From assembly GCA_030446745.1 (NCBI GenBank), contig JAUJMS010000010.1, positions 21,805 through 85,804 on the forward strand: DNA of 64,000 nt, read 5' to 3'. A program made the translations under genes and the position numbers. How positions within the stretch are numbered: position 1 is the first letter of the stretch; each line of letters opens with the position of its first letter. This document shows positions 1-54,769 of this stretch, in pieces. The DNA comes from Egibacteraceae bacterium. GTDB taxonomy: Bacteria; Actinomycetota; Nitriliruptoria; Euzebyales; Egibacteraceae. The notes beneath the pieces are model-generated. The model ran no database searches. It had not been told where the DNA came from and saw only the letters and a list, made by a program, of their open reading frames with translations.

Positions 1-1
1 A

Positions 2-2272
2 GTCACCCAGTTGTTCACCGAGAACTACATGGTGCGCTTCCTGCTCGAAAACTCTCTCGGCGCGTGGTGGGCCGACCGTCATCCTGACAGCCCGCTCATC
101 AAGGACTTCGACTACCTGCGCTTTGACGAAGACGGCCGCCCCGCCGCCGGCTCCTTCGACGGATGGCCCGACCGGGTCGCCCAGGTCACCGTCATGGACC
201 CGTGCTGCGGATCGGGTCACTTCCTCGTGGAAGCGTTCTCGATGCTGTGGCAGATGCGCGCCGAGGAAGAAGGGCTTTCCCCGATTGGCGCGCAGAACGC
301 GGTGCTGCACGACAACCTTTTTGGTCTCGAGCTCGACCCGCGCTGCGTGCAGATCGCCATGTTCGCGGTTGCGCTCCAGGCCTGGAAGGCGGGCGGACGC
401 TGGCGTCAGCTGCCCGTACCGAACATCGCCTGTTCCGGCATCCCGGTAAAGGCGTCGGTGGATGAGTGGAAGGCGCTCGCCGGCGAAGACCCGCGGTTCC
501 AGAACGCGCTGGTCCGCCTGCACGTCCTGTTCCGCGACGCGGACACGCTCGGTTCTCTGATCGACCCAAAGTGCGCCACCGAGATCAGCGATCGCTCCGG
601 CCTCCAAACGTCACTCGAAGACGTCGACTGGGACGAGACGGCACCCGTGGTCGCGGCGGCGACGAGAAGTGAGATCGTCGACCCGGCGTCACTGGCGCTC
701 GGTAACGACGCTGCCAGCATCGCTCGAACGGCCGATCTGCTGTCCCGCTCTTACACGCTTGTCGTGACGAACGTCCCATACCTTGGCCTTGGCAAAATGA
801 CCGATCGCCTCGCGGATCACGTGCGGGCGTACTACGCGGAGGCCAAGCATGACCTGGCATTGGTCTTCATCGACCGTTCGCTCCAGCTCTCTCAGCCTGG
901 CGGGACCGCTGCCGTGGTTGTCCCACAGAGCTGGCTTTACATGCCCCGGTACGAGCGATATCGACGCAGTCGCCTTACGTCGACGAAATTCGACTTGGTT
1001 GGCCGACTGGGCCCGCAGGCATTTGAAGTCGTCACGGGTTGGGTCGTGAACGTCTGCCTCGCCGTGCTGACGGCGACGCAACCTAGACCTGAACATGAGA
1101 TACGGTCGGTCGACGCTTCGGATGGCATCGGCCGTGCAAAGCGCGACGCGCTGGTGTTCGCACCAGTCCTGAGCACGCGGCAGTCCGCTCAACTCTCTAA
1201 TCCGGATTCCCGCATCACATTCGTGAGTACGGGGACCACTTCGCGGCTCGCTGATTACGCAGACAGTCGTTACGGTCTTCGCACCGGCGACTCGCGGCGG
1301 TTCGTCCGTTCATTCTGGGAACTTCCCACTCGGTCTGCCGAGTGGGTTCCCCACCTGACAACAGTCACGACTACCCGACCTTATGGCGGACGCGAGAACT
1401 GGCTTCTTTGGGAGGGCGGCCTCGGCGCCCTCGCGGACTACGCCCGCCTCGGCATCGCCAGCCTTCAAGGAGGCGATGCATGGGGTCGACGTGGAGTAGT
1501 CGTGAGTCTGATGGGAACCCTTCCTAGTTATCTCTACCTGGGTGAGAGATTTGACAATAACTGCGCCGTCGTATGGCCGAAGGACGCGTCGGACCTCCCT
1601 GCACTGTGGGCGTATCTCTCATCGGCTGAGTTTAACGAGGACGTGCGGGAGATTGACCAATCACTGAAGGTCATGAACGCCACCTTGTTAAAGGTGCCAT
1701 ATGACATTGAGCGGTGGCGCAAGGTCGCGGAGGAGGCGGGACCGCTGCCGGAGCCGTGGTCTGGTGATCCGACGCAGTGGTTGTTCGAGGGCCGGCCGGA
1801 GGTGCCGACAGTGCCGCTGCAGGTGGCTGTAGGTCGACTGGTCGGCTACCGATGGCCGGAGCAGGCGGAGTCGGATGATCTTGATAGGTTCGCCGACGTC
1901 GACGGGATTGTCTGCTTGCCGTCGGTTGCCGGCGAGCCGCCGGCGGCGGATCGGGTGCAGCAGGTCCTCGCCGCTGCGTACGGGGAGTCGTGGTCGCCGG
2001 CGCGGGTGAAGGAGCTGCTCGACCAGGCTGGGAGCAAGAAGAAGAACCTCGTCGACTGGTTGCGAGACGAGTTCTTCAAGCAGCACTGCGCACTGTTCGG
2101 CAACCGGCCGTTCGTGTGGCACGTGTGGGACGGGCTCCGTGACGGCTTCGCAGCATTGGTGAACTACCACCGCCTCGACCGCAAGATGCTGGAGAAGCTG
2201 ACCTACACCTACCTCGGCCAGGACTGGGTCGAGCGCCAGCGCGCCGGAGTCGGCGACGGTGGCCGGAGCTGA
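2..2272 (+). CDS. pglX: BREX adenine-specific DNA methyltransferase PglX, 5' partial
   Basis: This is the catalytic part of a large class I N6-adenine methyltransferase of the PglX/Eco57I type, which marks host DNA in BREX phage defence. The frame is open back to base 2 and reads VTQLFTENYMVRFL, an internal PglX segment, so the TTG at 11 is not a true start and the N-terminal part lies outside the window. The SAM-binding motif I appears as DPCCGSGHF and the catalytic motif IV as VVTNVPYLG (NPPY variant). The frame stops at 2272 with QRAGVGDGGRS, just where the next reading frame carries on the family sequence (VAGAEARL), so the stop comes from a frameshift. pglZ and brxL follow, which supports a BREX-1-like identity. 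Confidence 0.85.
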   Translation, partial: VTQLFTENYMVRFLLENSLGAWWADRHPDSPLIKDFDYLRFDEDGRPAAGSFDGWPDRVAQVTVMDPCCGSGHFLVEAFSMLWQMRAEEEGLSPIGAQNAVLHDNLFGLELDPRCVQIAMFAVALQAWKAGGRWRQLPVPNIACSGIPVKASVDEWKALAGEDPRFQNALVRLHVLFRDADTLGSLIDPKCATEISDRSGLQTSLEDVDWDETAPVVAAATRSEIVDPASLALGNDAASIARTADLLSRSYTLVVTNVPYLGLGKMTDRLADHVRAYYAEAKHDLALVFIDRSLQLSQPGGTAAVVVPQSWLYMPRYERYRRSRLTSTKFDLVGRLGPQAFEVVTGWVVNVCLAVLTATQPRPEHEIRSVDASDGIGRAKRDALVFAPVLSTRQSAQLSNPDSRITFVSTGTTSRLADYADSRYGLRTGDSRRFVRSFWELPTRSAEWVPHLTTVTTTRPYGGRENWLLWEGGLGALADYARLGIASLQGGDAWGRRGVVVSLMGTLPSYLYLGERFDNNCAVVWPKDASDLPALWAYLSSAEFNEDVREIDQSLKVMNATLLKVPYDIERWRKVAEEAGPLPEPWSGDPTQWLFEGRPEVPTVPLQVAVGRLVGYRWPEQAESDDLDRFADVDGIVCLPSVAGEPPAADRVQQVLAAAYGESWSPARVKELLDQAGSKKKNLVDWLRDEFFKQHCALFGNRPFVWHVWDGLRDGFAALVNYHRLDRKMLEKLTYTYLGQDWVERQRAGVGDGGRS

Positions 2273-2582
2273 GGCTCGGCTGTCGGCGGCGCTGGAGTTG
2301 CAGCGCAAGCTCGAACTCATCATTGAGGGTGAGAAGCCCTTCGACATCTTCGTGCGCTGGAAGGAACTCCACGAGCAGCCGATGGGCTGGGAGCCAGACG
2401 TCAACGACGGGGTGCGGCTGAACGTTCGCCCCTTCGTCGAGGCGGGTGTGCTGCGAGCGCCGTTCAACATCCATTGGAAGAAGGACCGAGGCAAGAACCC
2501 TGACGGCACCGAGCGTGAGAACGACAAGCATCTCTCGCTCGCCGAGAAGCTCGACGCCAGGAAGCGGACCGGCCGCAAATGA
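2259..2582 (+). pseudogene. pglX: C-terminal segment of PglX split off by a frameshift
   Basis: The ORF track lists this as a separate 107-aa protein from a GTG inside the end of pglX. Its content (FDIFVRWKELHEQPMGWEPD, NDGVRLNVRPF, NDKHLSLAEK) is what normally forms the extreme C-terminus of PglX-type methylases. The last intact residues of the upstream frame (DWVERQRAGV) join naturally to VAGAEARLSAALELQRKLEL here. I read it as the same gene broken by a small indel near 2255-2260. It ends at 2582, overlapping the pglZ start by 4 bases (ATGA), the coupling expected between pglX and pglZ. Confidence 0.75.
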
Positions 2583-4886
2583 GCGAGACCGTCCTCGACC
2601 GGATTGTGGCGGTGCTGTCCGACGCTCTGGCATACAACGCCGGCGCCTACGAGGCGCCCATCGCACTGCTGTGGCCGGACGAGACCAAGCAGTGGCGGTC
2701 GGTCGTCGACCGCCGGGCCGAGCACCTGCCGGTGGTGTCGCTGGGCGACTACGACCCGGTGGCGCGGCGGGGGCCGGGGTACTGGGTCCGCTGTGTCGTG
2801 GCCGGCACCGTTGATGCTGGTCTGCCGGCGGGAACGCCGATCGTGTACCTGCCGGGCGTCGCTCGGCCTTGCGTGCCGTCGACAGCTGTCCGGCGGAGCT
2901 GGCGCCCATCGCCGAGCTCCAATACCGCAGCCAGTGGTTCTCCCATCCGAACAGCCGGGACTGGTCGGTCCGGGCGCTCCTCTCGCACACCGTCCGTGGC
3001 CTTGGCCTGCACGTCGTCGATGACGCAGAGACCGCCGCCGCCCTGCTGCTGGCGCTTGACCGGCTGCTCGACGAGCGCATCGACCGCCTGGCCAAGCAGG
3101 TGCTCGATGCCGACTACTTCCGTGATCTCGTCAATCCCGATCCTGTCCGCAGCCTGCTCGGGTGGCTCGATGATCCACACGGGTACCGACGCCGGTTCGA
3201 CGACGCCCAGTGGTCGGCGTTCGTCCAGCAATGCAAGGCGGACTACGGCTTCGACCCGAGGCGACGGCGAGGTGTCCGCCGCCCGCAAGCTCGGCGACCG
3301 CAAGGGGGCGTGGGCGCACGTTTGGAAGCGGTTCGCCGAGACGCCCGGAGCGCTACCCAGGCATCCTCAACCAGCTTCGCAAGGCACGCCCCGAGGAGCT
3401 CATCGTCGACAACCTCGACGTCTGGCCGCAGGACAACGAGATGGCCGAGGACCAGCTACGTAGCCGCCTGCGCGACTTCGAGGGGCTGACCGTCGAGGGT
3501 GCACGCAAGGAAGCGGCCCGCCTCGACAGCGAGCACGCCTGGCGCCGGCGCACGGTGTGGGCCGACCTCGACATGGCACCGCTCGCCTTCGCGCTCGAAC
3601 AGCTTGTGGCGCTCGCCGAGCTGACGGCCCGCCCGCTCGCGGGTGGCGATTTCGACACTCTGACGGCCGACTACGCCGATCGCGGATGGCGGACCGACGA
3701 CGCCGTGCTGCGTGCCCTCGCCGCCGCCAGGAGGACGGCGCCGACCGAGCAGCGGTGTCCGTAGCCGCTGCGGTGATGTACCGGCACTGGCTCGACACCG
3801 GCGCCAAGGCCCTCCAGCCGCCATTGGCCCCATAGCCAATGCCCACACCTACCAGCCCGGTTCGCCGGCGTCGGTAGCGCCCGGCACGGCCACGCTGTTC
3901 GTCGACGGCCTGCGTCTCGACATCGCTCACCGTATGCAGGAACGTCTGGCCGGAGTCGGCCTGGAGGTGGATGCCGCCACCAGCTTGGCGGCGCTGCCGA
4001 CCGTCACCCAGACCGCCAAGTCCGCCCTGGTCCCCACGGCCAAGGGCACGCTCGTCGCCGGCCCCGACCTTCACCCAAAGAACGTTGTGACCGGCACCAA
4101 GGCGTCGATCCAGGTGCTGCGGAGCCTGATGTCCGACATCGGCGTGCAGGTCCTCGGGCCGACCGAGACTGGGGATCCTTCGGGGGCGGCGTGGGCCGAG
4201 GCCGGTGAGATTGACCACCGGGGTCACGACGTTGGTGTCCGGCTCGTGGACTACCTCGACGAGGAGGTCGGCCGCATCGTCGGGCGCATCCGCGAGCTGC
4301 TGGACGCCGGCTGGCGACGGGTCGACGTCGTAACAGACCACGGGTGGGTGCTCTTGCCGGGCGGGATGGAGAAGGTCGAGCTTCCACCGGCGACGGCCGA
4401 GGTGAAGAAGGGTCGCTGTGCCCGCCTCAAGGATGGTGCCGTGGTGGAGACACCGACCGTCCCGTGGTTCTGGGACCGGACGTGCGCATCGCTGGCTCCG
4501 GGTGCCACCTGCTTCGAGGCGAACAAGGAGTACGAGCACGGGGGCGTGAGCCCCCAGGAGTGCATCGTTCCCCGCCTCACGGTGACCGCCGGCGTGGCCG
4601 CAGCGACGACGGGCGGACCGCAGATCACCAAGATGAAGTGGCTCGGACTCCAGTGCCGCATCGAGCTGGCCGGCGCACCGACAAGGTGCTCGCCGACATC
4701 CGTGGCCTTCCCGCCGAGCCGAAGTCGAGCATTGCCGACCAGGCGAAGGAGACATCGGGGTCGGGCAGGGTGTCGCTCCTGGTACCCGACGAGGATCACG
4801 AGGGCGAGCGCGCCCATCTGGTTCTCGTCGCAGACAACGGCCGCATCCTCGCCCAGCGCGAGGTTGTCGTCGGGAGGAACCGATGA
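2579..4886 (+). pseudogene. pglZ: BREX alkaline-phosphatase-superfamily protein PglZ, multiply frameshifted
   Basis: Joined across frames, about 769 codons give one PglZ-like protein, close to the usual size of PglZ (about 770-850 aa). The order is: MSETVLDRIVAVLSDAL from 2579; QYRSQWFSHPNSRDWSVRAL from about 2869; SAARKLGDRKGAWAHVWKRF near 3270; ERYPGILNQLRKARPEELIV from about 3345; AAAVMYRHWLDTGAKALQ near 3775; the phosphatase core with TLFVDGLRLDI and VVTDHGWVLLPGG from about 3840; and KVLADIRGLPAEPKSSI near 4690 to the stop at 4886. Each junction changes frame, at least six in all, so no full-length product is made. PglZ is an essential BREX component. Resemblance to the PglZ type B group is inferred from length and context. 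Confidence 0.8.
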
Positions 4887-6248
4887 CCGACCTCGACGAG
4901 CTCGACCAGCTCGCCGCCGAAGTGTTCGAGGGCTACCTGGTCCTGCAAGGACCTGGCCCAGCAGTTCCGGGGCCAATATCCGGTGCCCACCTACGTCGGG
5001 GAGTTCCTGCTCGGTCGGTACTGCGCCACCACCGACCCCGACGAGATCGCCGAGGGCCTCGCCGTCGTCGAGCGGTCGATGAAGGAGCGCACGGTGCGCG
5101 CCGGCGACGAGGAGCTGTTCAAGTCGCGAGCCAGGGAGAAGGGCAAGGTCAAAATCATCGACCTGCTGCGGGCCCGGCTCGACGCCAAGGCGGATGCCTA
5201 CAAGGCCGAGCTCCCCAGCCTGCAGCTCAACGACATCCACATCTCCGACCAGCTGGTCAACGAGCACGACCGGATGCTCACCGGAGGCTTCTACGCCGAA
5301 GTCACCCTCGAGTACATCGCCGCCCTCGCCCGGGAGTCGGGCGGGCAGCCGTTCCGGGTCGAGTCGGTGCGGCCCATTCAGATGTCGACCCGCGATGCGC
5401 TCGACACCTTCGTCCACGGGCGGAGGCGGTTCACGCTCGACCAGTGGCGCGACCTCCTGCTGCGCAGCGTGGGCTTCGAGCCGGCGCGGTTCAGCCGTCG
5501 AGAACAGGACGTGCTCATCGCTCGGATGGTCCCCTTCGTGGTCACCAACTACAACGCTGTCGAACTCGGCCCACGGGGCACCGGCAAGTCGCACCTGTTC
5601 CAGCAGGTGTCGCCCTACGCCCATCTGGTGTCGGGCGGCAAGGCGACGATCGCCAACATGTTCGTGAACAACCGGACGGGTCGGCGCGGCCTGGTCGCCC
5701 AGTACGACGTCATCTGCTTCGACGAGGTCTCGGGCGTCTCGTTCGACACCAAGGAAGGCGTCAACATCCTCAAGGGCTATATGGAGTCCGGCGAGTTCAG
5801 CCGGGGCAAGGAGAGCATCCGAGCCGACGGCGGCATCGTGATGGTCGGCAACTTCGACGTCGACGTCGTCGAGGAGCTACGTCGAGGCCATCTCTTCGGG
5901 CCGATGCCCAAGGAGATGCGAGACGACACGGCGTTCCACGACCGCATCCACGCCTACCTCCCGGGCTGGGACGTCCCGAAGCTCGACCCTTCGTACTTCA
6001 CCGCCCACTTCGGCCTTGTCAGCGACTTCCTGGCTGAGTGTTGGAGCCAGCTTCGTCGCAGCTCACGGCTCGACGTCATGCAGGGCCGGTTGGTCTGGGG
6101 CAGCCAGTTCAGCGGCCGTGACCGCAAGGCGGTGAACAACACGGTCAACGGCCTGCTGAAGCTGCTGTGGCCAGAGCCGGAGATGGACGTGCCCGACGAG
6201 GCGCTCGCCTGGGCGGCGGAGCTGGCCCCGAGCCCGCCGGCGGCGTAA
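4883..6248 (+). pseudogene. brxL: BREX Lon-like AAA+ protein BrxL, frameshifted near the N-terminus
   Basis: BrxL of the shorter (~450 aa) BREX family. The ATG at 4883 overlaps the pglZ stop (ATGA) and encodes MTDLDELDQLAAEVFEGYLV. Near 4945 the frame must change to give KDLAQQFRGQYPVPTYVGEF, after which one long frame runs to 6248 (the track gives 4983-6248). Seen in it are a P-loop GPRGTGKSH, a Walker-B-like VICFDEVSGV and the FHDRIHAYLPGWD region. Only one indel separates this from an intact gene, so a product from an internal start is possible. The combination with pglX and pglZ is the BREX-1 order (brxA-brxB-brxC-pglX-pglZ-brxL); brxA, B and C would lie upstream of the window. Confidence 0.8.
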
Positions 6249-6271
6249 AGGAACAGCAGGCGGCCATCGGT

Positions 6272-7350
6272 GTGGCGGAGTTCGGCGAAGTGGACCTCAG
6301 CTACCGAGTCGGGGACGGCCCCGAGAAGGTCATGTTCTGCCAGGAGTCACTCCAACACCGGTTGGGCGAGGATCGCGAGGCAGACGAGCGTCGCCGTAGG
6401 CGACCCGGCGACAGCGATGTCCTTCTCGAACCGGATCCGGCGGAGGTCCGGTCGTCGGTCGGCGCCAAGGCAGCCGAGTACGCCGTGGGCGACGTCGTCG
6501 ACGGCCGCTTCGAGATTCTCGACATTCTCGGGCGAGGCGGCTTCTCGAAGGTCTACCGTGTGCGGGATGAGGTCGAGGACGAAGAACGAGCCTTCAAGCT
6601 CTTGAGAACGCCGCCGGCTACGACGCCGTCCGCCGTGAGATCGGTGCCCTACGCAAGGTCCATCATCCCAACGTGGTCGAGGTCTTTGGGCCGGGAAGAC
6701 GAACGCCGGCGACTGGTACCTCATCACCGAGTACATCGAGGGCGAGACCCTCGATGAGTACGCCACCGGCAAACGCCGTCTGCGTGACCGGGAGGCGGTC
6801 GATGTCGCCCTCGACATCCTCGATGCCCTCGTGGCCATCCACCCCGACTCTGCTCGGATCGAGGAACTCGAGAGAAAGAAGCACGAGGGCGAGCTCTCCG
6901 AGGCCGAGTACGACGAATGGATGGCGCTCCAGGAGAAGGGCCTGGTGCACCGGGACATCAAGCCGCTCAACGTCATGCTCACCCGCACCGGGGCCAAGTT
7001 GCTCGACTTCAACATCGCCTCGCGGGTCGGAGATCCCGTCTACACCCAATCAGGAACCCCGCCCTACCAGGCCCCCGACGTCAACCTGACCCGCTGGGAC
7101 GTCTCCACCGATCTCTTCGCCGTGGGCGTGGTGCTCTACCAGCTCCTCTGCGACGGTCGGCATCCGTACCCGGGTTCGAAGCCCATGGTTGGAGAGCAGG
7201 TGATCGATCCGAGAACGATCCGCCCCGACCTCAACCCCGAGTTGGCGGACTTCTTGGATGCAGGCTTGTGCTCCGACTCGTGACGAACGCTTTGCCACGG
7301 CCAGAGACATGCAGCTCTCGCTGCAGGCGGCCCGAAGTACGGGCCGGTAG
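6272..7350 (+). pseudogene. BREX-associated Ser/Thr protein kinase (PglW-like), frameshifted
   Basis: Eukaryotic-type kinase directly behind brxL. The start is a guess (GTG at 6272). After about 75 residues comes the kinase: ILGRGGFSKVYRV glycine loop, FKLL lysine, EYIEGETLDEYATG hinge, LVHRDIKPLNVML catalytic loop, LLDFNIASR (DFN in place of DFG) and GTPPYQAPDV activation segment. A roughly 20-residue charged insert with ELSEAEYDEW precedes the HRD motif. Frames change near 6605 and near 6690 (gtctttggg probably lacks one t), and near 7280 the stop in SDS* gives way to DERFATARDMQLSLQAA in the next frame, ending at 7350. PglW is the kinase of BREX type 2; a kinase beside brxL in a BREX-1-like set is less usual. 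Confidence 0.65.
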
Positions 7351-7405
7351 TCGTGGCCGACCTGACCGAAGAGTTCTGCCAGACAAGTCCAACTGAGGAG
7401 TAGCC

Positions 7406-8231
7406 ATGAAGGTGTCGAACATCCTGGACCTCATCGACTCAGGGGACATGGCGCTCCCAGAATTCCAGCGAGGCTACGTGTGGAATAGGGAGCAGGTCCG
7501 TGGCCTGATGCACTCGCTCTATCGAGGGTACCGGTTGGAAGCCTGCTGACATGGGTGACCAAGACCGACGTTGCGGCCACGCGAGGCGACAGTCCTACCT
7601 CGGATGGATCAGTGAAGCTACTCCTCGACGGTCAGCAGCGGATGACGACACTGTACGGCATTGTCGAGGTCGGCCGCCCCGCTTCTTTGATGGCAGGCCC
7701 GAGGTGCTAAAGGGTCTGTTCTCTTCAATAGAAGAGGCTGTGTTCGAGTTCTATGCCCCCGCAAAGATGGCAGATAATCCACTCTGGGTCGATGTGACAG
7801 AGCTCATACAGAAATGGAATCGGTGCTTTTCTAACACGGATTACCGCCCTGCCAGCCATGACTGTTGATCGTCAGCGTGAGTATATCAACCGCTTGAACG
7901 CCGTCACTCAGGTGCTCAATGTCGACCTTCACGTTGAAGAGGTGACCGGGGAGGATAAGACTGTTGACGTGGTGGTAGAAATCTTCAACCGGGTCAATTC
8001 TGGAGGCACGAAACTTTTCGAAGGGGGACCTTGCCCTGGCCAAGGTATGCGCTGGTTGGCCCGAAGCGCGGGATACGATGAAGGGTCACCTCAGCCGGTG
8101 GCGTGCCGGTTTCGAGTTTCGCCTCGACTGGCTACTGCGAAACACAAATGCGCTCTTGACCGGAGAGGCAATGTTTTCGGCCCTCAAGGATATAAGTACA
8201 TCGCAGTTCAAGACCGGGCTGGAGCGATCCA
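7406..8231 (+). pseudogene. DUF262 (GmrSD/ParB-like) protein, frameshifted and 3'-truncated
   Basis: DUF262 proteins are ParB-fold nucleases or NTPases common in defence islands. ATG 7406 begins MKVSNILDLIDSGDMALPEF and continues QRGYVWNREQV, the classic DUF262 start. The second signature LLLDGQQRMTTLYGI is in another frame after a base is lost near 7532. Later pieces follow in further frames: RFFDGRPEVLKGLF, TVDRQREYINRLNAV with EIFNRVNSGGTKL, and HLSRWRAGFEFRLDWLLRN. At least four frame changes are needed. Family-like sequence ends near LERS at about 8230, where an oppositely oriented aldehyde dehydrogenase fragment begins. GC content is visibly lower here (for example 7700-8200) than in the rest of the window, which supports foreign origin. 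Confidence 0.75.
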
Positions 8232-10380: not shown

Positions 10381-12021
10381 TCAGGCCGCGACGAGCGCGT
10401 CCTCGAGCAGGCGGCGCACGATGACGCGCAGGGCAAGGGTCTCGTCGGCGCCCTCGAAGATCGACAGGACCCGCGCGTCGACGAAGTAGCGGCTGACCGC
10501 GAACTCCTCGGCGTAGCCCATGCCGCCGTGGATCTGCTGCGCCTCACGCGTGAGCTGCTCGGCGGCCAGGCACGACAGCGACTTGACCATCGACGCCTCC
10601 AGCTGGCCCTCGCCGGCGCCGAGCTGCTGCGCGGCCCGGTACGCGAAGCGCCGGCACGCCGCGATGAGCACCGCCATCCGGGCGAGCTTCGCCTTGGTCA
10701 GCTGGTAGTCGGCCAGCGCGACGCCGAACACCTGCCGCTCGCGGGCGTAGGCGATCGCCGCCTCGAACGCCGCCTGCATGACGCCGAGCGCCCTGGCGGC
10801 CGTCTGCAGCCGGCCGTTGGCGAACGCGTCGAGCTGCAGGTAGAAGCCACGCCCGAGCTGCGCCTCGCCGCCGACGAGGTTCGCCGCCGGCACGCGGTAG
10901 TCGTCGAAGCCGATCTCGAAGCTGTGCATCCCGCGGTAGCCGATCGTGCCGATCGCCCGCGCGGTCATCGTCCCGCCCCGCTCGCCGTCGTGGGTGAAGG
11001 CGTGGCCGGGGTAGGACGGCTTCTCGACGACGAACAGCGACAGGCCGCGGTGCGCGTCCTGCGGCGTCCCGGTGCGCGCGAGCAGCATCAGCAGGTTCGC
11101 GCGCCCGGCGAAGGTGCACCAGGTCTTCACGCCGTTGACGACGTAGTCGTCGCCGTCGCGCACCGCGGTCACCTTCAGCGACGCGACGTCCGAGCCGTAG
11201 TCGGGCTCGGTGACCGCGACCGCGCACATCAGCTCGCCGGCGGCGATGGCCGGCAGCCAGCGCTGCTTCTGCTCGTCGGTGCCGCCCTTGACCAGAGCCT
11301 TGGACAGGATCTCCGGGCGGGTGATCAGGCTGCCGGCGACGCCGAGCGAGCCCCGTGACAGCTCCTCGGTCACCACGACCATCGACAGCAGGTCGTTCTC
11401 GGACTGCGCGCCGTCGCCGCCAGCGAAACCGCCGTAGGTCTCGGGAATCGACAGCCCGAAACAGCCCATCGCCGCGAGCTCGCGGATGATCTCGTCGGGG
11501 ATGTCGGCGTCCTCGCGGTGGATCCGCTCGGCGACCGGGGCGACCCGCGCCTCGGCGAAGTCGCGGAACGTCGCGCGGACCATCGAGAGTTCCTCAGACA
11601 GCTCGCGCGGCAGGTCGGCGTCGCGCACCACCCGGTCGGCGATCTCTTCGAGCAGCGCCGGGTCGCGCGCCGTGCGCAGCGCCGCCGCGACGTCGTCACC
11701 GGCCAGCGTTGCCGCGGCGTCCCAGGCCGCCTCGCGCCCGGCGATGCGCCCCGCGAGGTCGGCGGCGACCATGCCGGCGAACGCGACGGTCAGCAGCCGC
11801 TCCAGCCCGCCGCGCTCGCCGTAGGCGAGCATCTCCTGCGCGGCGGTGACCTGGCCTGCGACCGACGCCAGGTCGTAGGCGAGGACCTGCCCGCGGTCGA
11901 GCAGCTCCACGTCGATGCGGCCGTCCTTCGCGCTGTCGCGCGCGAGCCGCGCGGCGGCCGCGTCGACGGCGCGGCGGCAGGCCGTCACGAGGGTGGCCGC
12001 GGTCTCGAGCGCAACGTCCAT
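10381..12021 (-). CDS. Acyl-CoA dehydrogenase, (2S)-methylsuccinyl-CoA dehydrogenase-like
   Basis: A 546-aa FAD-dependent acyl-CoA dehydrogenase. It carries a ~130-residue helical N-terminal extension (ELLDRGQVLAYDLASVAGQV) before the usual domains (MVRATFRDFAEARVAPVAE, AVTEPDYGSDVASLKV, IGYRGMHSFEIGFDDYRVP, QIHGGMGYAEEF, SIFEGADET). Length, extension and motifs resemble the (2S)-methylsuccinyl-CoA dehydrogenase of the ethylmalonyl-CoA pathway. No other gene of that pathway is visible in the window, so the substrate remains open. The ORF track extends it to 12450, but that would run over the divergent cyclase gene; ATG 12021 leaves a 130-bp shared promoter region. Confidence 0.75.
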   Translation of the reverse strand: MDVALETAATLVTACRRAVDAAAARLARDSAKDGRIDVELLDRGQVLAYDLASVAGQVTAAQEMLAYGERGGLERLLTVAFAGMVAADLAGRIAGREAAWDAAATLAGDDVAAALRTARDPALLEEIADRVVRDADLPRELSEELSMVRATFRDFAEARVAPVAERIHREDADIPDEIIRELAAMGCFGLSIPETYGGFAGGDGAQSENDLLSMVVVTEELSRGSLGVAGSLITRPEILSKALVKGGTDEQKQRWLPAIAAGELMCAVAVTEPDYGSDVASLKVTAVRDGDDYVVNGVKTWCTFAGRANLLMLLARTGTPQDAHRGLSLFVVEKPSYPGHAFTHDGERGGTMTARAIGTIGYRGMHSFEIGFDDYRVPAANLVGGEAQLGRGFYLQLDAFANGRLQTAARALGVMQAAFEAAIAYARERQVFGVALADYQLTKAKLARMAVLIAACRRFAYRAAQQLGAGEGQLEASMVKSLSCLAAEQLTREAQQIHGGMGYAEEFAVSRYFVDARVLSIFEGADETLALRVIVRRLLEDALVAA

Positions 12022-18152: not shown

Positions 18153-18352
18153 AGGTGCTCGAGCGTCCCCGGCGCGATCCGCGCCCCCTCGACGAACGCG
18201 TCGACGTCGCTGCGCTTCAGGCGGATGACCCGGCCGAACTTGTAGGCCGGCAGCTGCCCTTCGTCGATGAGCCGGTACAGCGTGCGGGGCGTGAGCCCCA
18301 GGTGGCGGGCCGCCTCAGCGGTCCCCAGCCACTGCATCTCCTGCGCTTCCAT
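18101..18352 (-). CDS. Excisionase/AlpA-family helix-turn-helix DNA-binding protein
   Basis: An 83-aa protein with a MerR-like winged helix: LGTAEAARHLGLTPRTLYRL then IDEGQLPAYKFGRVIRLKRS and DVDAFVEGARI, the excisionase-family fold also used by BldC-like regulators. ATG 18352 is chosen because the longer ORF crosses an intergenic repeat. It faces the Tad pilus operon and likely controls it, but this is context only. Its first codons and upstream region are duplicated 1.4 kb away, in front of cpaB (see repeats). Confidence 0.8.
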   Translation of the reverse strand: MEAQEMQWLGTAEAARHLGLTPRTLYRLIDEGQLPAYKFGRVIRLKRSDVDAFVEGARIAPGTLEHLYPDGKKDASVSEASAT

Positions 18353-18445
18353 GGTTCTCCAGTGTAGCGCATGATGGTCTGGCACGGTCGAACTTGCGCG
18401 CGGGCAGACTACGCCCGCCGGCGGCCAAGACCGCGGAGGCGGCGA
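18314..18445. repeat. Left copy of a ~120-bp direct repeat flanking the RES toxin-antitoxin pair
   Basis: The stretch runs gcggtccccagccac ... ctcctgcgcttccatggtt ... gtgtagcgcatgatgg ... tacgcccgccggcgg ... gaccgcggaggc. It contains the first ~13 codons of the excisionase-like gene and its upstream region. The same string recurs at 19711-19835 in the same orientation, with roughly 85% identity by eye. Confidence 0.85.
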
Positions 18446-18529
18446 CGGGCAGACCGACGCCGGCGACGGCGGTGTCCTGTCGGTCCGGCTACAGTGGTAG
18501 CAAGACACATCGGACGCTTGGAGTCCTCT

Positions 18530-18985
18530 ATGGCGGCGCTCGAGACGATTCAGGCGCGGGTCGTCGAGCCGGTACTCGACCACGCCGCTTTGGAAAACGC
18601 GCGTCTGGTCAACCACGCCAGGGCCCAGCTGCTCACGTCGGGCACCGCCGTCACGGTTGAGGCGATCGCTGCCGCGCGCGGCAAGAACGCGGACACGGTG
18701 CGTCGGTGGGCGGCCCGCCAACGACGTCTCGGCAGGCTCGTGACGGTCACCCATGACGGGCAGGCCCTCATCCCGAGCGTGCAGCTGGATGAGGCGCTCG
18801 ACGTTGATGAGGCAGTGGCGACCCTGGTGCGGCGTTGCGTCGCACACGGTATGGACGGATGGGCGGTATGGCACTGGTTCGAGGCGCCCAATACCTGGCT
18901 CGACGGCGACGTGCCGGCGCGGCGCCTTCGCGCCGGTGATATCGATGCGGTGCGCCATGCGCTGAGCGGCATGTTCCAGGAGTGA
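18530..18985 (+). CDS. MbcA/ParS/Xre-type antitoxin (DUF2384)
   Basis: A 151-aa protein starting at ATG 18530 behind GGAG. The N-terminal half has a DNA-binding-like helix pair (VEAIAAARGKNADTVRRWAA). The C-terminal part GWAVWHWFEAPNTWLDGDVP with ARRLRAGDIDAVRHAL is the MbcA/ParS toxin-binding motif, which normally blocks the active site of RES toxins. The stop overlaps the toxin GTG (GTGA). A TACAGT hexamer about 40 bp upstream could be a -10 box. Confidence 0.75.
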   Translation: MAALETIQARVVEPVLDHAALENARLVNHARAQLLTSGTAVTVEAIAAARGKNADTVRRWAARQRRLGRLVTVTHDGQALIPSVQLDEALDVDEAVATLVRRCVAHGMDGWAVWHWFEAPNTWLDGDVPARRLRAGDIDAVRHALSGMFQE

Positions 18986-19692
18986 CCGCTGCTGCGCCAT
19001 GCGGCAGCGCCGTCTGCCCCGTACCGCGCGCGCCGCCCCATGCCGGTCTGCGCACGGTCGTCTGGCACGCCGGCACCACGCTGCACCGCGGGTACAAACG
19101 CGCACACCCGGATGCGACAGAACTGGCGCCCGGTCTCGGCGACACCCGGTTCGCGCCTCAGGGAGGATGCAGCCACGTCTACGTGGCGACCACCAGCTTC
19201 GCGGCGCTGCTCGAGTCGGCGCTGCACGACGCAGCGCCACCCGCACCCCAGATCCCGCGGGCGCTGCTTTCCCTATGGTCTGAAGCCCACGTGGCGCTCC
19301 GCGAATCGGTGCGCCTCATTGACCTGCGTGACGCCGAGCTCGAGCGGCTAGGCCTCACGAGGTCCGCTCTGGTGTCGACGACGGCCGCGCACTATCCATG
19401 CACACGCGCCTGGGCCGCGCAGCTGGTGGGCCGCGCGATCGGAGGCCAGCGGACGCACGGATTGGTGTGGCACTCGCGTCAGGCGGAGCTGCACGCCCAG
19501 GCGATGACTCACCGACCGGCAGTGGCGGACCTGTTGGATCATCACCCGGCGGAGGTCGCGATCCTGTGGTCACCGCCAGCTGCGCCGGACCTTCTCGCCG
19601 CCGCCGCCGGAGGGTTGGGGGCGCTCGACGCCGGTCCCGGTCGGGACTATGTCGCTGACCTCACTGCCCTCCTCGGCATCATCACGATGTGA
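18982..19692 (+). CDS. RES-domain toxin (NAD+-degrading ADP-ribosyl-transferase fold)
   Basis: A 236-aa protein with RES signatures in order: TTLHRGYKRAHPDATELAP, GDTRFAPQGG, HVYVATTSFAALLESALHD (conserved Glu) and HGLVWHSRQAELHA (conserved Ser). RES toxins deplete NAD+ by phosphorolysis or hydrolysis and are kept in check by the antitoxin encoded just upstream. The frame is intact, so the pair may be active. It is larger than minimal RES toxins (about 150-180 aa). It is flanked by a direct repeat, which suggests it was inserted into the promoter region of the pilus locus. Confidence 0.8.
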   Translation: MTAAAPCGSAVCPVPRAPPHAGLRTVVWHAGTTLHRGYKRAHPDATELAPGLGDTRFAPQGGCSHVYVATTSFAALLESALHDAAPPAPQIPRALLSLWSEAHVALRESVRLIDLRDAELERLGLTRSALVSTTAAHYPCTRAWAAQLVGRAIGGQRTHGLVWHSRQAELHAQAMTHRPAVADLLDHHPAEVAILWSPPAAPDLLAAAAGGLGALDAGPGRDYVADLTALLGIITM

Positions 19693-19710
19693 TGGCGAGG
19701 AGTCTCCGTC

Positions 19711-19835
19711 AGGCGGTCCCCAGCCACGGATCTCCTGCGCTTCCATGGTTTCCCGGTGTAGCGCATGATGGCCTGGCACGGCCGAAGTCGGGCGGGCTAG
19801 AGTACGCCCGCCGGCGGCGACGACCGCGGAGGCAC
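19711..19835. repeat. Right copy of the ~120-bp direct repeat, upstream of cpaB
   Basis: It matches 18314-18445 in the same orientation, including ctcctgcgcttccatggtt, gtgtagcgcatgatgg and tacgcccgccggcgg. On the minus strand it still spells the start of the excisionase-like protein (MEAQEI), after which the similarity is lost. It ends just before the cpaB ribosome binding site, so it probably carries the native pilus-operon promoter. Confidence 0.85.
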
Positions 19836-19854
19836 GGCACATGAGGGTTCGGCG

Positions 19855-20586
19855 ATGACCGACCTGAGCACCGCTCCGGCCGACACGGGAGGCTCCGCGG
19901 CGCCGCGCCCGCGGCCGCTGCGGCGTCGTCGCTCGCTGCCCAACGGCCGCGCCGTGGTCGGCGGCTTCCTCGTCGCCGTCGCCGCCGTCGGGGTGTTCGC
20001 GGCCTACGTCAGCGCGACGGCCCCGCCGGTCACGGGCTACGCCGTCGCGGCCCGGGACCTCGCGCCGGGCGACCGCATCGACGCGACGGCGTTCATGCTC
20101 GTACCCATCGATTTGCCTGACGCGCAGCGCGCTCGCGCCTACGACGAGGTCGTCCCTTTGCTGGACACGACGGTGGTCGAGCCGCTGGTGGCCGGTGAGC
20201 TGGTCCAAGAGGGTGCGGTGGTGCCAACGCGCGCAGATGCCGGTGTGCGCACGGTGTCGTTCGCCGTCGAGGCGTCGCGCGCCGTCGCCGGCAGGCTGCA
20301 GGCCGGCGAGCGTGTCGACGTGCTCGCGACGTTCGGCAGCGGGAGCGACGCCTGCACCTACGTCGTCGCGGCCGACGTCGCGCTCGTCAGCGTCGGGCAG
20401 GCGAGCGACTCGCTGGTCGCCGAGGGTGCGATCACCGTGAGCGTCGCGCTGTCCAGCGCCGACGACGAGCTCGCGGTGGCGCACGCCGCTGGGGCCGGGA
20501 CGGTGACGCTGGCGCGCACCACCGGGGCGTCGACCGGTGCGCCGCCCGAGCGCTTCTGCACCCCGACGGCCGCCGCCGACCGCTGA
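19855..20586 (+). CDS. cpaB: Flp pilus assembly protein CpaB/RcpC (SAF domain)
   Basis: A 243-aa protein with a basic N-terminus and one transmembrane helix (VVGGFLVAVAAVGVFAAYV). A SAF domain follows (YAVAARDLAPGDRIDATAF) and then a C-terminal beta domain with VRTVSFAVEASRAVAGRL and QAGERVDVLATF. CpaB acts in the periplasmic part of Tad pilus machines. It is the first gene of a tightly packed operon: its TGA shares bases with the next ATG (TGATG). RBS gaggg precedes ATG 19855. Confidence 0.85.
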   Translation: MTDLSTAPADTGGSAAPRPRPLRRRRSLPNGRAVVGGFLVAVAAVGVFAAYVSATAPPVTGYAVAARDLAPGDRIDATAFMLVPIDLPDAQRARAYDEVVPLLDTTVVEPLVAGELVQEGAVVPTRADAGVRTVSFAVEASRAVAGRLQAGERVDVLATFGSGSDACTYVVAADVALVSVGQASDSLVAEGAITVSVALSSADDELAVAHAAGAGTVTLARTTGASTGAPPERFCTPTAAADR

Positions 20587-21890
20587 TGGGCGCCGACCGG
20601 TTCGTCGTCCTCGGCGTCGCCCGCGCGCGGTCGGCATGGTTCCGCGACGTCGCCCAGTGGGCGACCTCGGCGGCGATCCCGGCCGAGTTCGTCAAGTGCG
20701 TGTCGGCGGAGGAGGTGCGCGCGCACCTCACCGGCGGGCGCGTGTTCTCGGCGGCGCTGCTCGACGCCGGGCTGCCGTCGGTCGACCGCGACCTCATCGC
20801 CGCTGCGCGCGACGCCGGCTGTGTCGCCCTGGTCGTCGACGACGGGCGCGCGAGCCGCGACTGGCACGCACTCGGGGCTGCGGCGGTCCTGCCGCCTGAC
20901 CTTGACCGCGAGCACCTCGTCGACGTGCTCGCCGCGACCGCGACGATGGTCGACGGCGGCGACGCCGCGCCCGGCCGCCGCCAGCGCCCGCGCGCGCTGC
21001 CGACCGCACGGGGACGCGTCGCCGTGGTGTGCGGTCCCGGCGGCAGCGGCGCCTCCACGGCCGCGATCGCGCTCGCCCAGCAGCTGGCCGCCGATGCCGA
21101 CGCCGGTCCGGTGCTGCTCGCCGACCTCGCGCTGCGCGCGGAGCAGGCGATGCTGCACGACGCGCGCGACGTCGTGCCCGGTGTGCAGGAGCTCGTCGAG
21201 GCGCACCGCGGTCGCGAACCGTCCGCCGCGGAGGTCACGGCCCTGACCTACGACGTCACGGCACGGGGCTACGCCTTGCTGCTGGGTCTGCGGCGCGCGC
21301 GGTACTGGGCGACCATCCGGCCACGGTCGTTCGAGGCGGCCTTCGACTCGTTGCGGCGGACCTTCGGCACCGTCGTGTGCGACGTGACCGCCGACTTCGA
21401 GGGCGAGGACCAAGGCGGGTCGCTCGACGTCGAGGAGCGCAACCTCATGGCGCGCACCGCGGTCCTGGCCGCCGATGCCGTCCTGGTCGTCGGCATGGCC
21501 GGCGTGAAAGGACTCCACGCGCTGGTGCACGTGCTCGTCGACCTGCTCGACGCCGGCGTTCCCGCGGGCCGCATCGTGCCGGTCGTCAACTGCGCCCCGC
21601 GCGGCCTGCGCGCCCGGGCCGAGGTCGCGGCGGCGGTCGCCGCGCTCACAACGTTGCCGGGACGGGGACCGGCCGCGCTGCCGACACCCGTGTTCCTGCC
21701 GCGCCGCCGGGTCGAGGAGGCGCTGCGCGACGGGGTGGCGCTGCCGGCACCGCTCGGCCAGCTGCTCGCCGGGGCCTTTCGCGCCACGTTGACGCGCAGC
21801 CCGCGGCTGGTCGCGGCGGCGGCGACGCCGGTCCCGGTGACGCCCGGCACGCTGGGCAGCTGGCACGGCCAGGAGGCGAGCGGGGCGTGA
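20586..21890 (+). CDS. CpaE/TadZ-like pilus localisation ATPase
   Basis: A 434-aa protein. The N-terminal ~130 residues resemble a receiver-like domain without a clear phosphorylation site. The C-terminal MinD/ParA-type domain has the P-loop VVCGPGGSGASTAAIALAQQ and a Walker-B-like FGTVVCDVTADFEG. TadZ/CpaE proteins place the Tad secretion machine in the cell. The gene overlaps cpaB by one base and tadA by four (GTGA). Confidence 0.8.
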   Translation: MGADRFVVLGVARARSAWFRDVAQWATSAAIPAEFVKCVSAEEVRAHLTGGRVFSAALLDAGLPSVDRDLIAAARDAGCVALVVDDGRASRDWHALGAAAVLPPDLDREHLVDVLAATATMVDGGDAAPGRRQRPRALPTARGRVAVVCGPGGSGASTAAIALAQQLAADADAGPVLLADLALRAEQAMLHDARDVVPGVQELVEAHRGREPSAAEVTALTYDVTARGYALLLGLRRARYWATIRPRSFEAAFDSLRRTFGTVVCDVTADFEGEDQGGSLDVEERNLMARTAVLAADAVLVVGMAGVKGLHALVHVLVDLLDAGVPAGRIVPVVNCAPRGLRARAEVAAAVAALTTLPGRGPAALPTPVFLPRRRVEEALRDGVALPAPLGQLLAGAFRATLTRSPRLVAAAATPVPVTPGTLGSWHGQEASGA

Positions 21891-53023: not shown

Positions 53024-53401
53024 TTGTCATGCTTCGCGGCTTGCTACGGCAGCGTGGCGCCGGTCTCACGCGTCCGCAGGAGGCCGACGCCCACCGCCAG
53101 GCTCGTCAGACCCAGCAGGACCAGTGCGACGATGCCCAGGCCGGTGGAGGCGAGGGCGTCGACGACGCCGACCGCCCCCAGCGTGCGCGCGGCGCGCGAT
53201 GCGTTGCCGGCTGCCCCGACGAGCGCGGTCGGCGTCATCCCGGCGATGCCGAGTACGCCCTCGGCCGGCGGCTGGCCGACCGTGGTCTGCGCGTCCGGCG
53301 TCCCGCCGGAACGAGTGATGACGACGTCGGCGACCTCGGTGTCGCCCTCGCGTTCGATGACGACACCGAGCACGCCCTCGTCGATCGGCGGCGTCACCTG
53401 G

Positions 53402-53480
53402 GTGCCGTCAGTGCCGTCAGTGCCGTCAGTGCCGTCAGTGCCGTCGGTGCCGTCAGTGCCGTCGTCAGTGCCGTCAGTGC
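53402..53480 (-). repeat. 9-bp tandem repeat (gtgccgtca)n
   Basis: About eight or nine copies of gtgccgtca with one variant (gtgccgtcg). On the minus strand it encodes GTD/TDG units (DGTDGTDGT) in the linker before the sorting-signal domain. Copy-number slippage keeps frame because the unit is a multiple of three. Confidence 0.85.
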
Positions 53481-53924
53481 CCGGAGGCACACTGCACCCA
53501 GAAGACCTTGCTTGACGTTGTTGCCGCGCTCGTTGTTGCTCTCGACGGTGACCTTGATGTGGAAGCCCTGCTTGGACTGCTCGAAGGCGGCGAGCGCGTC
53601 GCTCAGGTCGTAGAACGCCGACCCGACCAGGGTGTTGCCGCGAACCTTGCCGTCCTTGGTGAAGGTGACACGGTCGTGGCCAGAACGTCCCCGCGACCGG
53701 TCGGCGGCTGGGTGGTGAAGGTCACGTCCGCGAAGTCGTCGTCGAAGCCGAAGAAGTCAACCTCGAAGTCGCAGCCGGGGTGGGGCTCGTTGTCCGGGTG
53801 GTCGTCGAACGGGCGGCCGTCGATCTTGATGGTCCCGGTGTTGCCACCGCGGCCGCGCTCCTTGTCGGTGCCGCCGCCCTTGCCCCTGTCGGGGCGGTCG
53901 CCGTTGCCGGGACCGTTGCCTTCG

Positions 53925-54150
53925 CCCGGACCGTTGACCTCACCGGGACCGTTGCCCTGACCCGGACCGTTGCCCTCGCCCGGACCGTTGCCCTGCCCGG
54001 ACCGTTGCCCTCGCCCGGGACCACGTTGCCCTCGCCGGGACCGTTGCCCTCGCCGGGACCGTTGCCCTCGCCCGGACCGTTGCCCTGGCCGTTGTCGCCG
54101 ACCGGGACGCCGGGACCGTTGCCCTCGCCCGGACCGTTGCCCGCCGTTGT
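53925..54150 (-). repeat. 18-bp tandem repeat encoding NGPGEG
   Basis: A unit of about ccgggaccgttgccctcg is repeated imperfectly some ten times. On the minus strand it encodes GEGNGP. Missing or extra single bases between units (for example near 54000) shift the frame, giving the RATVRARATV readings in the ORF track. Confidence 0.75.
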
Positions 54151-54311
54151 CGCCGCCCGGGTTCGGGTCGCCAGGCGCGCCGGCCGACTTGCCGCGTTCG
54201 CCGCGTGGCGCCTGTCCCGGGGCGCCGGCGGACTTGCCTCGCTCCCCCCGTGGCCCGTGCCCCGGCGCGCTGGCTGACGCCCCGTTGTTGCGCGGTCCCC
54301 GCGACGGCTTG

Positions 54312-54470
54312 GCGGCCGGCTGCGGCTTCGGCTTGGCGGCCGGCTGCGGCTTCGGCTTCGCGGCCGGCTGCGGCTTCGGCTTCGCGGCCGGCCGCGGCGC
54401 TTCGGCTTCGGCTTCGCCGCGGGTTGCGGCTCGGGCTGCGGCTTCGGCTTGGCCTTCGCGGCCGGCTGCG
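54312..54470 (-). repeat. 24-30-bp repeat encoding AKPKPQPAA
   Basis: ggccggctgcggcttcggct recurs about four to five times, encoding lysine/proline/alanine/glutamine-rich units on the minus strand, a wall-spanning type of linker. At least one indel (near 54395) changes the frame. Confidence 0.75.
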
Positions 54471-54769
54471 CCTTTGGTTCGGCCTCGCGCTGGGACTGCG
54501 CCGCGGCAGGCTTGTCCGCCGGGCGCTGCTGGTCGGTCTCGCCGCCCTGACCGCCGCGGCCCTCCGCGGGCGTGTCGGTCTGGCCGGCATCGTCGGGGCG
54601 CCCGCCGTCAGGGGCGGCGGCCGCGAGGCCGGACAGGGCAAGCGTCAATGACGCCGCTACGCAAGTAGCAGCGTGGCGAGGCGTCGAGCAGGCAGTGCGT
54701 GCATCGTGGCGATCTCCCGTCGGAAACGACGTGACTGTCGGCTTCCGGGGCGGTCTCGCCACTTGCTCC

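What the first reader, a model, noticed from the sequence alone, without database searches (positions are those of the whole stretch)
2..7350. Decaying BREX-1-like island with a kinase next to brxL
pglX, pglZ and brxL occur in BREX-1 order with start-stop overlaps, followed by a Ser/Thr kinase, which is a BREX-2 (PglW) feature. All four genes are broken, so this may be a hybrid system now losing function, or a phase-variable one.
Basis: partly seen in the sequence, partly recalled or inferred. Interest (0 to 1): 0.65.

Follow-up and report, generated by a model that had tools for sequence, protein, structure and literature searches.

The report
Phage-defence protein with built-in kinase
The "kinase next to brxL" is really the tail of BrxL itself: in a small actinobacterial branch of the BREX-1 phage-defence system, the usual Lon-like end of the BrxL motor has been swapped for a protein kinase, and this window holds a frameshift-riddled copy of that fusion.

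Summary
The genes are there, and the BREX-1 label holds: brxA, brxB and brxC lie just upstream of the window. The "hybrid with a BREX-2 kinase beside brxL" reading is wrong. In ten other genomes whose sequence is unbroken here, BrxL N-domain, AAA+ ATPase and Ser/Thr kinase are one uninterrupted frame (816-821 aa; two are cut at the contig's edge), inside brxC-pglX-pglZ-brxL operons where the contig reaches that far. The kinase occupies the place of the Lon-like domain. All 12 kinase-type BrxL cores form one clade (100/100) nested among Lon-type BrxL, so one swap suffices. Catalytic residues are invariant (DFG reads DFN). The kinase is closer to other defence kinases (MAD6, PD-T4-6) than to PglW. 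In the window the fusion is cut by frame changes. About 30 private 1-2-nt indels, no in-frame stops and strongly conserved codon positions 1 and 2 argue for sequence error or very recent damage, not old decay. The upstream intact pglX and the window's pglX look like two alleles meeting at a single N; a tandem is not shown. The 2026 BREX survey's main text names only Lon-like and HKD-nuclease tails; kinase tails appear undescribed in what I could read. New variant of a known system.

The parts
1..2582 (+). pglX (allele 2), from about residue 206 to the end; one frame change near 2257; middle (target-recognition) region differs from the upstream intact pglX allele
   Evidence: PADLOC PglX E=1e-262 (11-2272) and 1e-40 (2259-2582); tblastn frames; identity profile
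2579..4883 (+). pglZ, BREX-1 type B, split over several frame segments
   Evidence: NCBIfam BREX_PglZ_1_B 3e-92 and 2.5e-32 on pieces; tblastn frames
4883..6490 (+). brxL N-domain, AAA+ ATPase and linker (frame changes near 4945 and between 6197 and 6245)
   Evidence: Pfam BrxL_N and BrxL_ATPase; 93% aa identity to Micromonospora BrxL-kinase L020 over 4947-6197
6490..7341 (+). Ser/Thr kinase domain of the same brxL gene (takes the place of the Lon-like domain), in several frame segments
   Evidence: tblastn of intact BrxL-kinase L016/L020 continues through it; Pkinase 2e-15
7400..8098 (+). GmrSD-type (DUF262) restriction gene remnant, N-terminal half, frameshifted
   Evidence: Pfam GmrSD_N 5.6e-9 (7400-7531) and 0.007 (7858-8043); an intact GmrSD gene follows brxL-kinase in L016

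Best explanation
The locus is a BREX type 1 operon (brxA-brxB-brxC-pglX-pglZ type B-brxL, then a GmrSD-type gene) of a variant in which BrxL carries a Hanks-type Ser/Thr kinase at its C-terminus instead of the Lon-like domain. Shown by sequence: one open frame in other genomes, a single clade, loss of the Lon-like domain, invariant kinase catalytic residues. Inferred mechanism: PglX methylates self DNA. On unmodified phage DNA the BREX complex licenses BrxL, whose N-domain and AAA+ ring assemble on the DNA. The kinase tails, up to 12-14 per double ring if the assembly is like canonical BrxL, are brought together, trans-activate and phosphorylate BREX partners or host/phage targets to stop infection. 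The window's copy is a frameshifted version of this gene; the lesions are more likely sequence/assembly error or very recent damage than long decay. My confidence is for the anatomy; the effector mechanism alone I put at about 0.4.
For: Ten uninterrupted BrxL-kinase frames (L015, L016, L019, L020, L022, L024, L026, G040 full length; L023, L025 cut at the contig edge). Pfam: BrxL_N + BrxL_ATPase + Pkinase, no Lon_C. BrxL-core tree: 12 kinase rows one clade 100/100 nested among Lon-type. Invariant P-loop Gly, K572, E586, HRD 690-692, N697, D709. Full-length BrxL model TIGR02653 aligns only to position 470 of 675 and misses its cut-off; TIGR02688 and PglZ type B pass. Only one BrxL found in G000, in G040 and in the Phytoactinopolyspora genome G597. 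brxA/B/C upstream. Indels without in-frame nonsense; codon-position identity 0.94/0.98/0.62 for brxL vs L020.
Against: No experiment exists. DFG is DFN in every member, so activity may be altered or absent. The AlphaFold model was poor (mean pLDDT 48; only the kinase part is fair) and cannot support the assembly picture. In the published BrxL structure the Lon-like domain joins two rings (PMC10164562); without it the double ring may not form. Frame damage in the window itself cannot be separated from assembly error without reads.
Confidence: 0.8

Rival explanations
1. Regulatory kinase: the BrxL-fused kinase phosphorylates PglX, PglZ or BrxL to hold the system off (or permit modification) until phage DNA is met, as proposed for PglW/PglZ in Pgl (BREX-2), rather than acting as the effector.
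For: Pgl pairs a kinase with PglZ; PMC9009780 notes BREX-1 has no kinase, leaving the PglZ phosphatase target obscure; PglZ type B is intact in these operons.
Against: The kinase sits in the slot that in other BrxL holds a PLD-like nuclease or an AlbA_2 domain, which look like effectors; it is nearer MAD6/PD-T4-6 than PglW.
Confidence: 0.3
2. The kinase domain is only a scaffold (pseudokinase-like, DFN), replacing the structural, non-catalytic Lon-like domain.
For: The Lon-like domain of BrxL is itself not a protease (PMC10164562, PMC12839542); DFG is DFN throughout.
Against: Lys, Glu, HRD Asp, Asn and the metal Asp are all invariant over 9 aligned proteins.
Confidence: 0.15
3. True hybrid: a separate BREX-2/PglW-like kinase gene beside brxL, island decaying.
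For: Frames are broken in the window.
Against: Intact relatives show one continuous gene; PglW score 84 vs cut-off 990; no NERD, BrxD or BrxHI gene seen in the stretch examined.
Confidence: 0.03
4. The second pglX reflects a real pglX-pglZ tandem duplication used for specificity switching.
For: Two copies 83-86% identical at the DNA ends with divergent middle regions.
Against: They meet at a single N, the mark of a scaffold join; the rest of pglZ-1 and the start of pglX-2 are missing and found nowhere else in the genome; no examined relative has a tandem.
Confidence: 0.15

Closest known systems
Canonical BREX type 1 with Lon-like BrxL (e.g. Deinococcus sp. NW-56 plasmid, PglZ type B)
   Same: Gene order where compared, PglZ type B, BrxL N-domain and AAA+ about 70% identical
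   Different: C-terminal Lon-like domain replaced by a Ser/Thr kinase
BrxL-HKD (PLD-like/MIT_C) variants of BREX type 1 (PMC12839542)
   Same: Same principle: C-terminal domain of BrxL exchanged
   Different: Nuclease-like tail, not kinase; separate branches in the BrxL-core tree
BREX type 2 / Pgl (PglW kinase)
   Same: A Ser/Thr kinase is part of the defence operon
   Different: PglW is a 1400-1600-aa protein with NERD and pseudokinase domains; no BrxL; kinase only distantly related
MADS kinase MAD6 and PD-T4-6 kinase
   Same: Nearest kinase families in NCBIfam/PADLOC
   Different: MAD6 179 bits vs cut-off 460; to my knowledge not fused to an AAA+ DNA-binding ring protein
Sll1717-type P-loop ATPase-kinase fusions (L017, L018, L021, L027, L028)
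   Same: Same kinase cassette, most with a similar Pro-Glu-Pro-Asp linker
   Different: Different N-terminal ATPase; no BREX gene found in the fetched stretches; FHA gene next to it in L027

Membership tests
BREX type 1 | brxA, brxB, brxC, pglX, pglZ, brxL in this order on one strand | tested here: met
   PADLOC/NCBIfam/tblastn on C19:13446-28049; intact in G040
BREX type 1 | BrxL with N-domain and AAA+ ATPase | tested here: met
   Pfam BrxL_N and BrxL_ATPase; TIGR02688 438 bits vs 329 in L016 and 411 in the window piece
BREX type 1 | BrxL C-terminal Lon-like domain (canonical form) | tested here: not met
   No Lon_C hit; TIGR02653 stops at 470/675 and is below cut-off; Pkinase instead
BREX type 1 | Site-specific N6-adenine methylation of self DNA and phage restriction | not testable with these tools
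   Needs methylome and plaque assays
BREX type 2 (Pgl) | PglW kinase with NERD domain; no BrxL | tested here: not met
   PglW 84 bits vs cut-off 990, kinase region only; BrxL present
BrxL-HKD variant | C-terminal PLD-like (MIT_C) domain | tested here: not met
   No MIT_C in kinase-type BrxL; present in L048, L051
MADS | MAD6 kinase above model cut-off | tested here: not met
   179 vs 460 bits; MAD2 model 23 vs 720 on pglX
Phase-variable BREX | Switching frame or alleles within one population | not tested
   Needs reads; two pglX alleles meet at a scaffold N

The most novel reading that the evidence does not exclude
The C-terminus of BrxL is an exchangeable effector slot (Lon-like, PLD-like, Schlafen AlbA_2, Ser/Thr kinase), and in this clade BREX-1 restricts phage by protein phosphorylation triggered when BrxL rings assemble on non-self DNA.
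Probability: 0.3. Interest if true: 0.75.

Novelty: new variant of a known kind. Interest (0 to 1): 0.5.

Why it matters
How BREX stops phage after recognising unmethylated DNA is still debated, and a published analysis states that no kinase is present in BREX-1, leaving the target of the PglZ phosphatase fold obscure (PMC9009780). A BREX-1 branch with a kinase built into its DNA-loading AAA+ protein makes the role of BrxL's tail, and of phosphorylation in BREX, directly testable with one point mutation.

Tried and rejected
(1) PF08665 search of the own genome gave nothing: pglZ is in pieces and distant from that model; NCBIfam type B found it. (2) Separate PglW-like gene: rejected by intact relatives and scores. 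(3) A natural split of BrxL and kinase in Phytoactinopolyspora (L014 = G597, identical sequence) is a run of N in the linker, not a split. (4) AlphaFold on a 9-row alignment was too weak to use; no fold search made. (5) Literature: Menshen paper PMC12065111, cited for BrxL tails, is not held; survey supplements could not be read; MADS paper not found. (6) First-lobe window kinase row in the kinase tree was taken in a wrong frame, so its place there is not used. (7) Plasmid tblastn: 562 records match BrxL, none covers 80% of BrxL-kinase.

Full report
Setting. The window is G000:C19:21805-85804 of a 2.7-Mb draft genome in 59 contigs. I read the 21.8 kb upstream as well. Below, c19 = window + 21804.

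What is there. Upstream: brxA (PADLOC 2e-78), brxB (7e-65), brxC in many frame pieces, an intact pglX of 1060 aa (c19 18190-21372), and the first ~145 codons of pglZ, then a single N at c19 21804. The window starts in a second pglX at about residue 206; then pglZ, brxL, kinase and a GmrSD_N remnant follow to about 8.1 kb, after which ordinary chromosomal genes begin. NCBIfam names the pglZ type B.

The kinase is part of BrxL. A scan of 85,000 species genomes with the window's kinase piece gave 17 loci. In L015, L016, L019, L020, L022, L024 and L026 the kinase is the C-terminal part of a single 818-821-aa frame whose first 470 residues are BrxL; L023 and L025 show the same but are cut at the contig edge, and G040 of the same class has an 816-aa one. 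Where the contig reaches far enough, brxC-pglX-pglZ precede it with short overlaps. Pfam finds BrxL_N, BrxL_ATPase and Pkinase and no Lon_C, while a nearby Lon-type relative (L035) does give Lon_C. The full-length BrxL model TIGR02653 stops at 470 of 675. tblastn with the intact proteins runs from brxL straight through the window's kinase, changing frame several times.

One origin. In a tree of 34 BrxL cores, the 12 kinase-bearing ones (window, G040, L014-L016, L019, L020, L022-L026) are one clade at 100/100, inside a larger group of Lon-type BrxL and next to one AlbA_2-type. They come from Actinomycetota (Mycobacterium, Micromonospora, Phytoactinopolyspora, Solirubrobacteraceae, Acidimicrobiaceae) and one MAG labelled Dormiibacterota. 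They are rare: 2 of 66 genomes of the own class, 2 of 397 sampled in the phylum, 1 of 395 in another class. The core and kinase trees disagree on partners (G040 with L014 in the core, G040 away from L014 in the kinase), which suggests that tails are still exchanged; this is only suggestive.

The tail is a slot. Of 24 BrxL proteins in the phylum sample I assign by their C-terminal sequence about 10 Lon-like, 6 Schlafen AlbA_2, 5 PLD-like (MIT_C), 2 kinase and 1 cut; Pfam confirmed L035 (Lon_C), L040, L044, L056 (AlbA_2), L048, L051 (MIT_C) and G040 (Pkinase). The 2026 survey of BREX (PMC12839542, section 19) describes Lon-like and HKD-nuclease tails only, and its main text links kinases to PglW and a Schlafen/histidine-kinase gene, not to BrxL. 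I could not read its supplements or the Menshen paper, so prior mention remains possible.

Kinase character. Over the nine aligned proteins the P-loop glycines, K572, E586, HRD 690-692, N697 and D709 are invariant; DFG reads DFN in all. The closest curated families are MAD6 (179 bits, cut-off 460) and PD-T4-6; PglW scores 84 (cut-off 990). Solved relatives are PknB/StkP-type kinases. The same kinase with a similar linker is also fused to an Sll1717-type P-loop ATPase in other actinobacteria.

Is it decaying? Against L020 and L016, about 16 indels private to the window genome lie in 2.5 kb of brxC and about 14 in 4.8 kb of pglZ-brxL, nearly all 1-2 nt and almost none a multiple of three; pglX-1 has one dubious case. 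The aligned in-frame stretches tested hold no stop, and codon-position identities (brxL 0.94/0.98/0.62) show strong constraint. A frame-decoding model puts 17 of its frame changes in about 13-18 kb and 8 in 24-29 kb of c19, against about 15 in the next 57 kb, a rate like its calls on the intact G040 locus (8 in 36 kb). Old neutral decay should have left nonsense codons and relaxed positions (general knowledge). I therefore favour locally poor sequence or very recent damage; reads would decide. Single Ns at c19 12818 and 21804 bracket an 8985-bp piece; from memory, some scaffolders write a single n where neighbouring contigs should overlap but do not align, which fits two alleles of the same region better than a tandem. 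The allele pair differs in the middle third of PglX (20-48% identity in 60-column blocks against 75-93% on either side), the usual variable target-recognition part.

How it may work (inference). Canonical BrxL forms DNA-bound rings joined tail to tail by the Lon-like domain (PMC10164562). With a kinase there, ring assembly on unmodified phage DNA would concentrate many kinase domains, the standard way Hanks kinases are switched on, and phosphorylation of BREX partners or host/phage proteins would stop infection. A regulatory role like that proposed for PglW with PglZ is the main rival; a scaffold role is possible because of DFN. None of these steps is shown.

Noticed in passing
L040, L044, L045, L047, L052, L056: BrxL proteins whose Lon-like tail is replaced by a Schlafen AlbA_2 domain; not mentioned in the BrxL section of the 2026 survey.
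   Followed up: partly
L017:1278-3875, L018:348-2957, L021:4705-7680, L027:7970-10411, L028:7829-10408: Sll1717-type P-loop ATPase fused to the same kinase cassette; an FHA-domain gene lies next to it in L027. Possible separate defence or signalling system.
   Followed up: partly
window 1 (C19:21804) and C19:12818: Single N at each place brackets an 8985-bp piece with brxA-C, intact pglX and the start of pglZ; probable scaffold joins.
   Followed up: partly
window 53044-54645: Another frame on the minus strand with five predicted frame changes, outside the BREX island.
   Followed up: no
C19:6322-7329 and 11108-11869 (L001): IS3-like transposase and a serine recombinase upstream of brxA (named by eye), consistent with a mobile island.
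   Followed up: no
L010: Low-GC IMG/VR contig with a BrxL 65% identical to the window's and a full pglX.
   Followed up: no
L014 (= G597): Phytoactinopolyspora locus has a run of N inside brxL's linker and a broken pglX middle region.
   Followed up: partly
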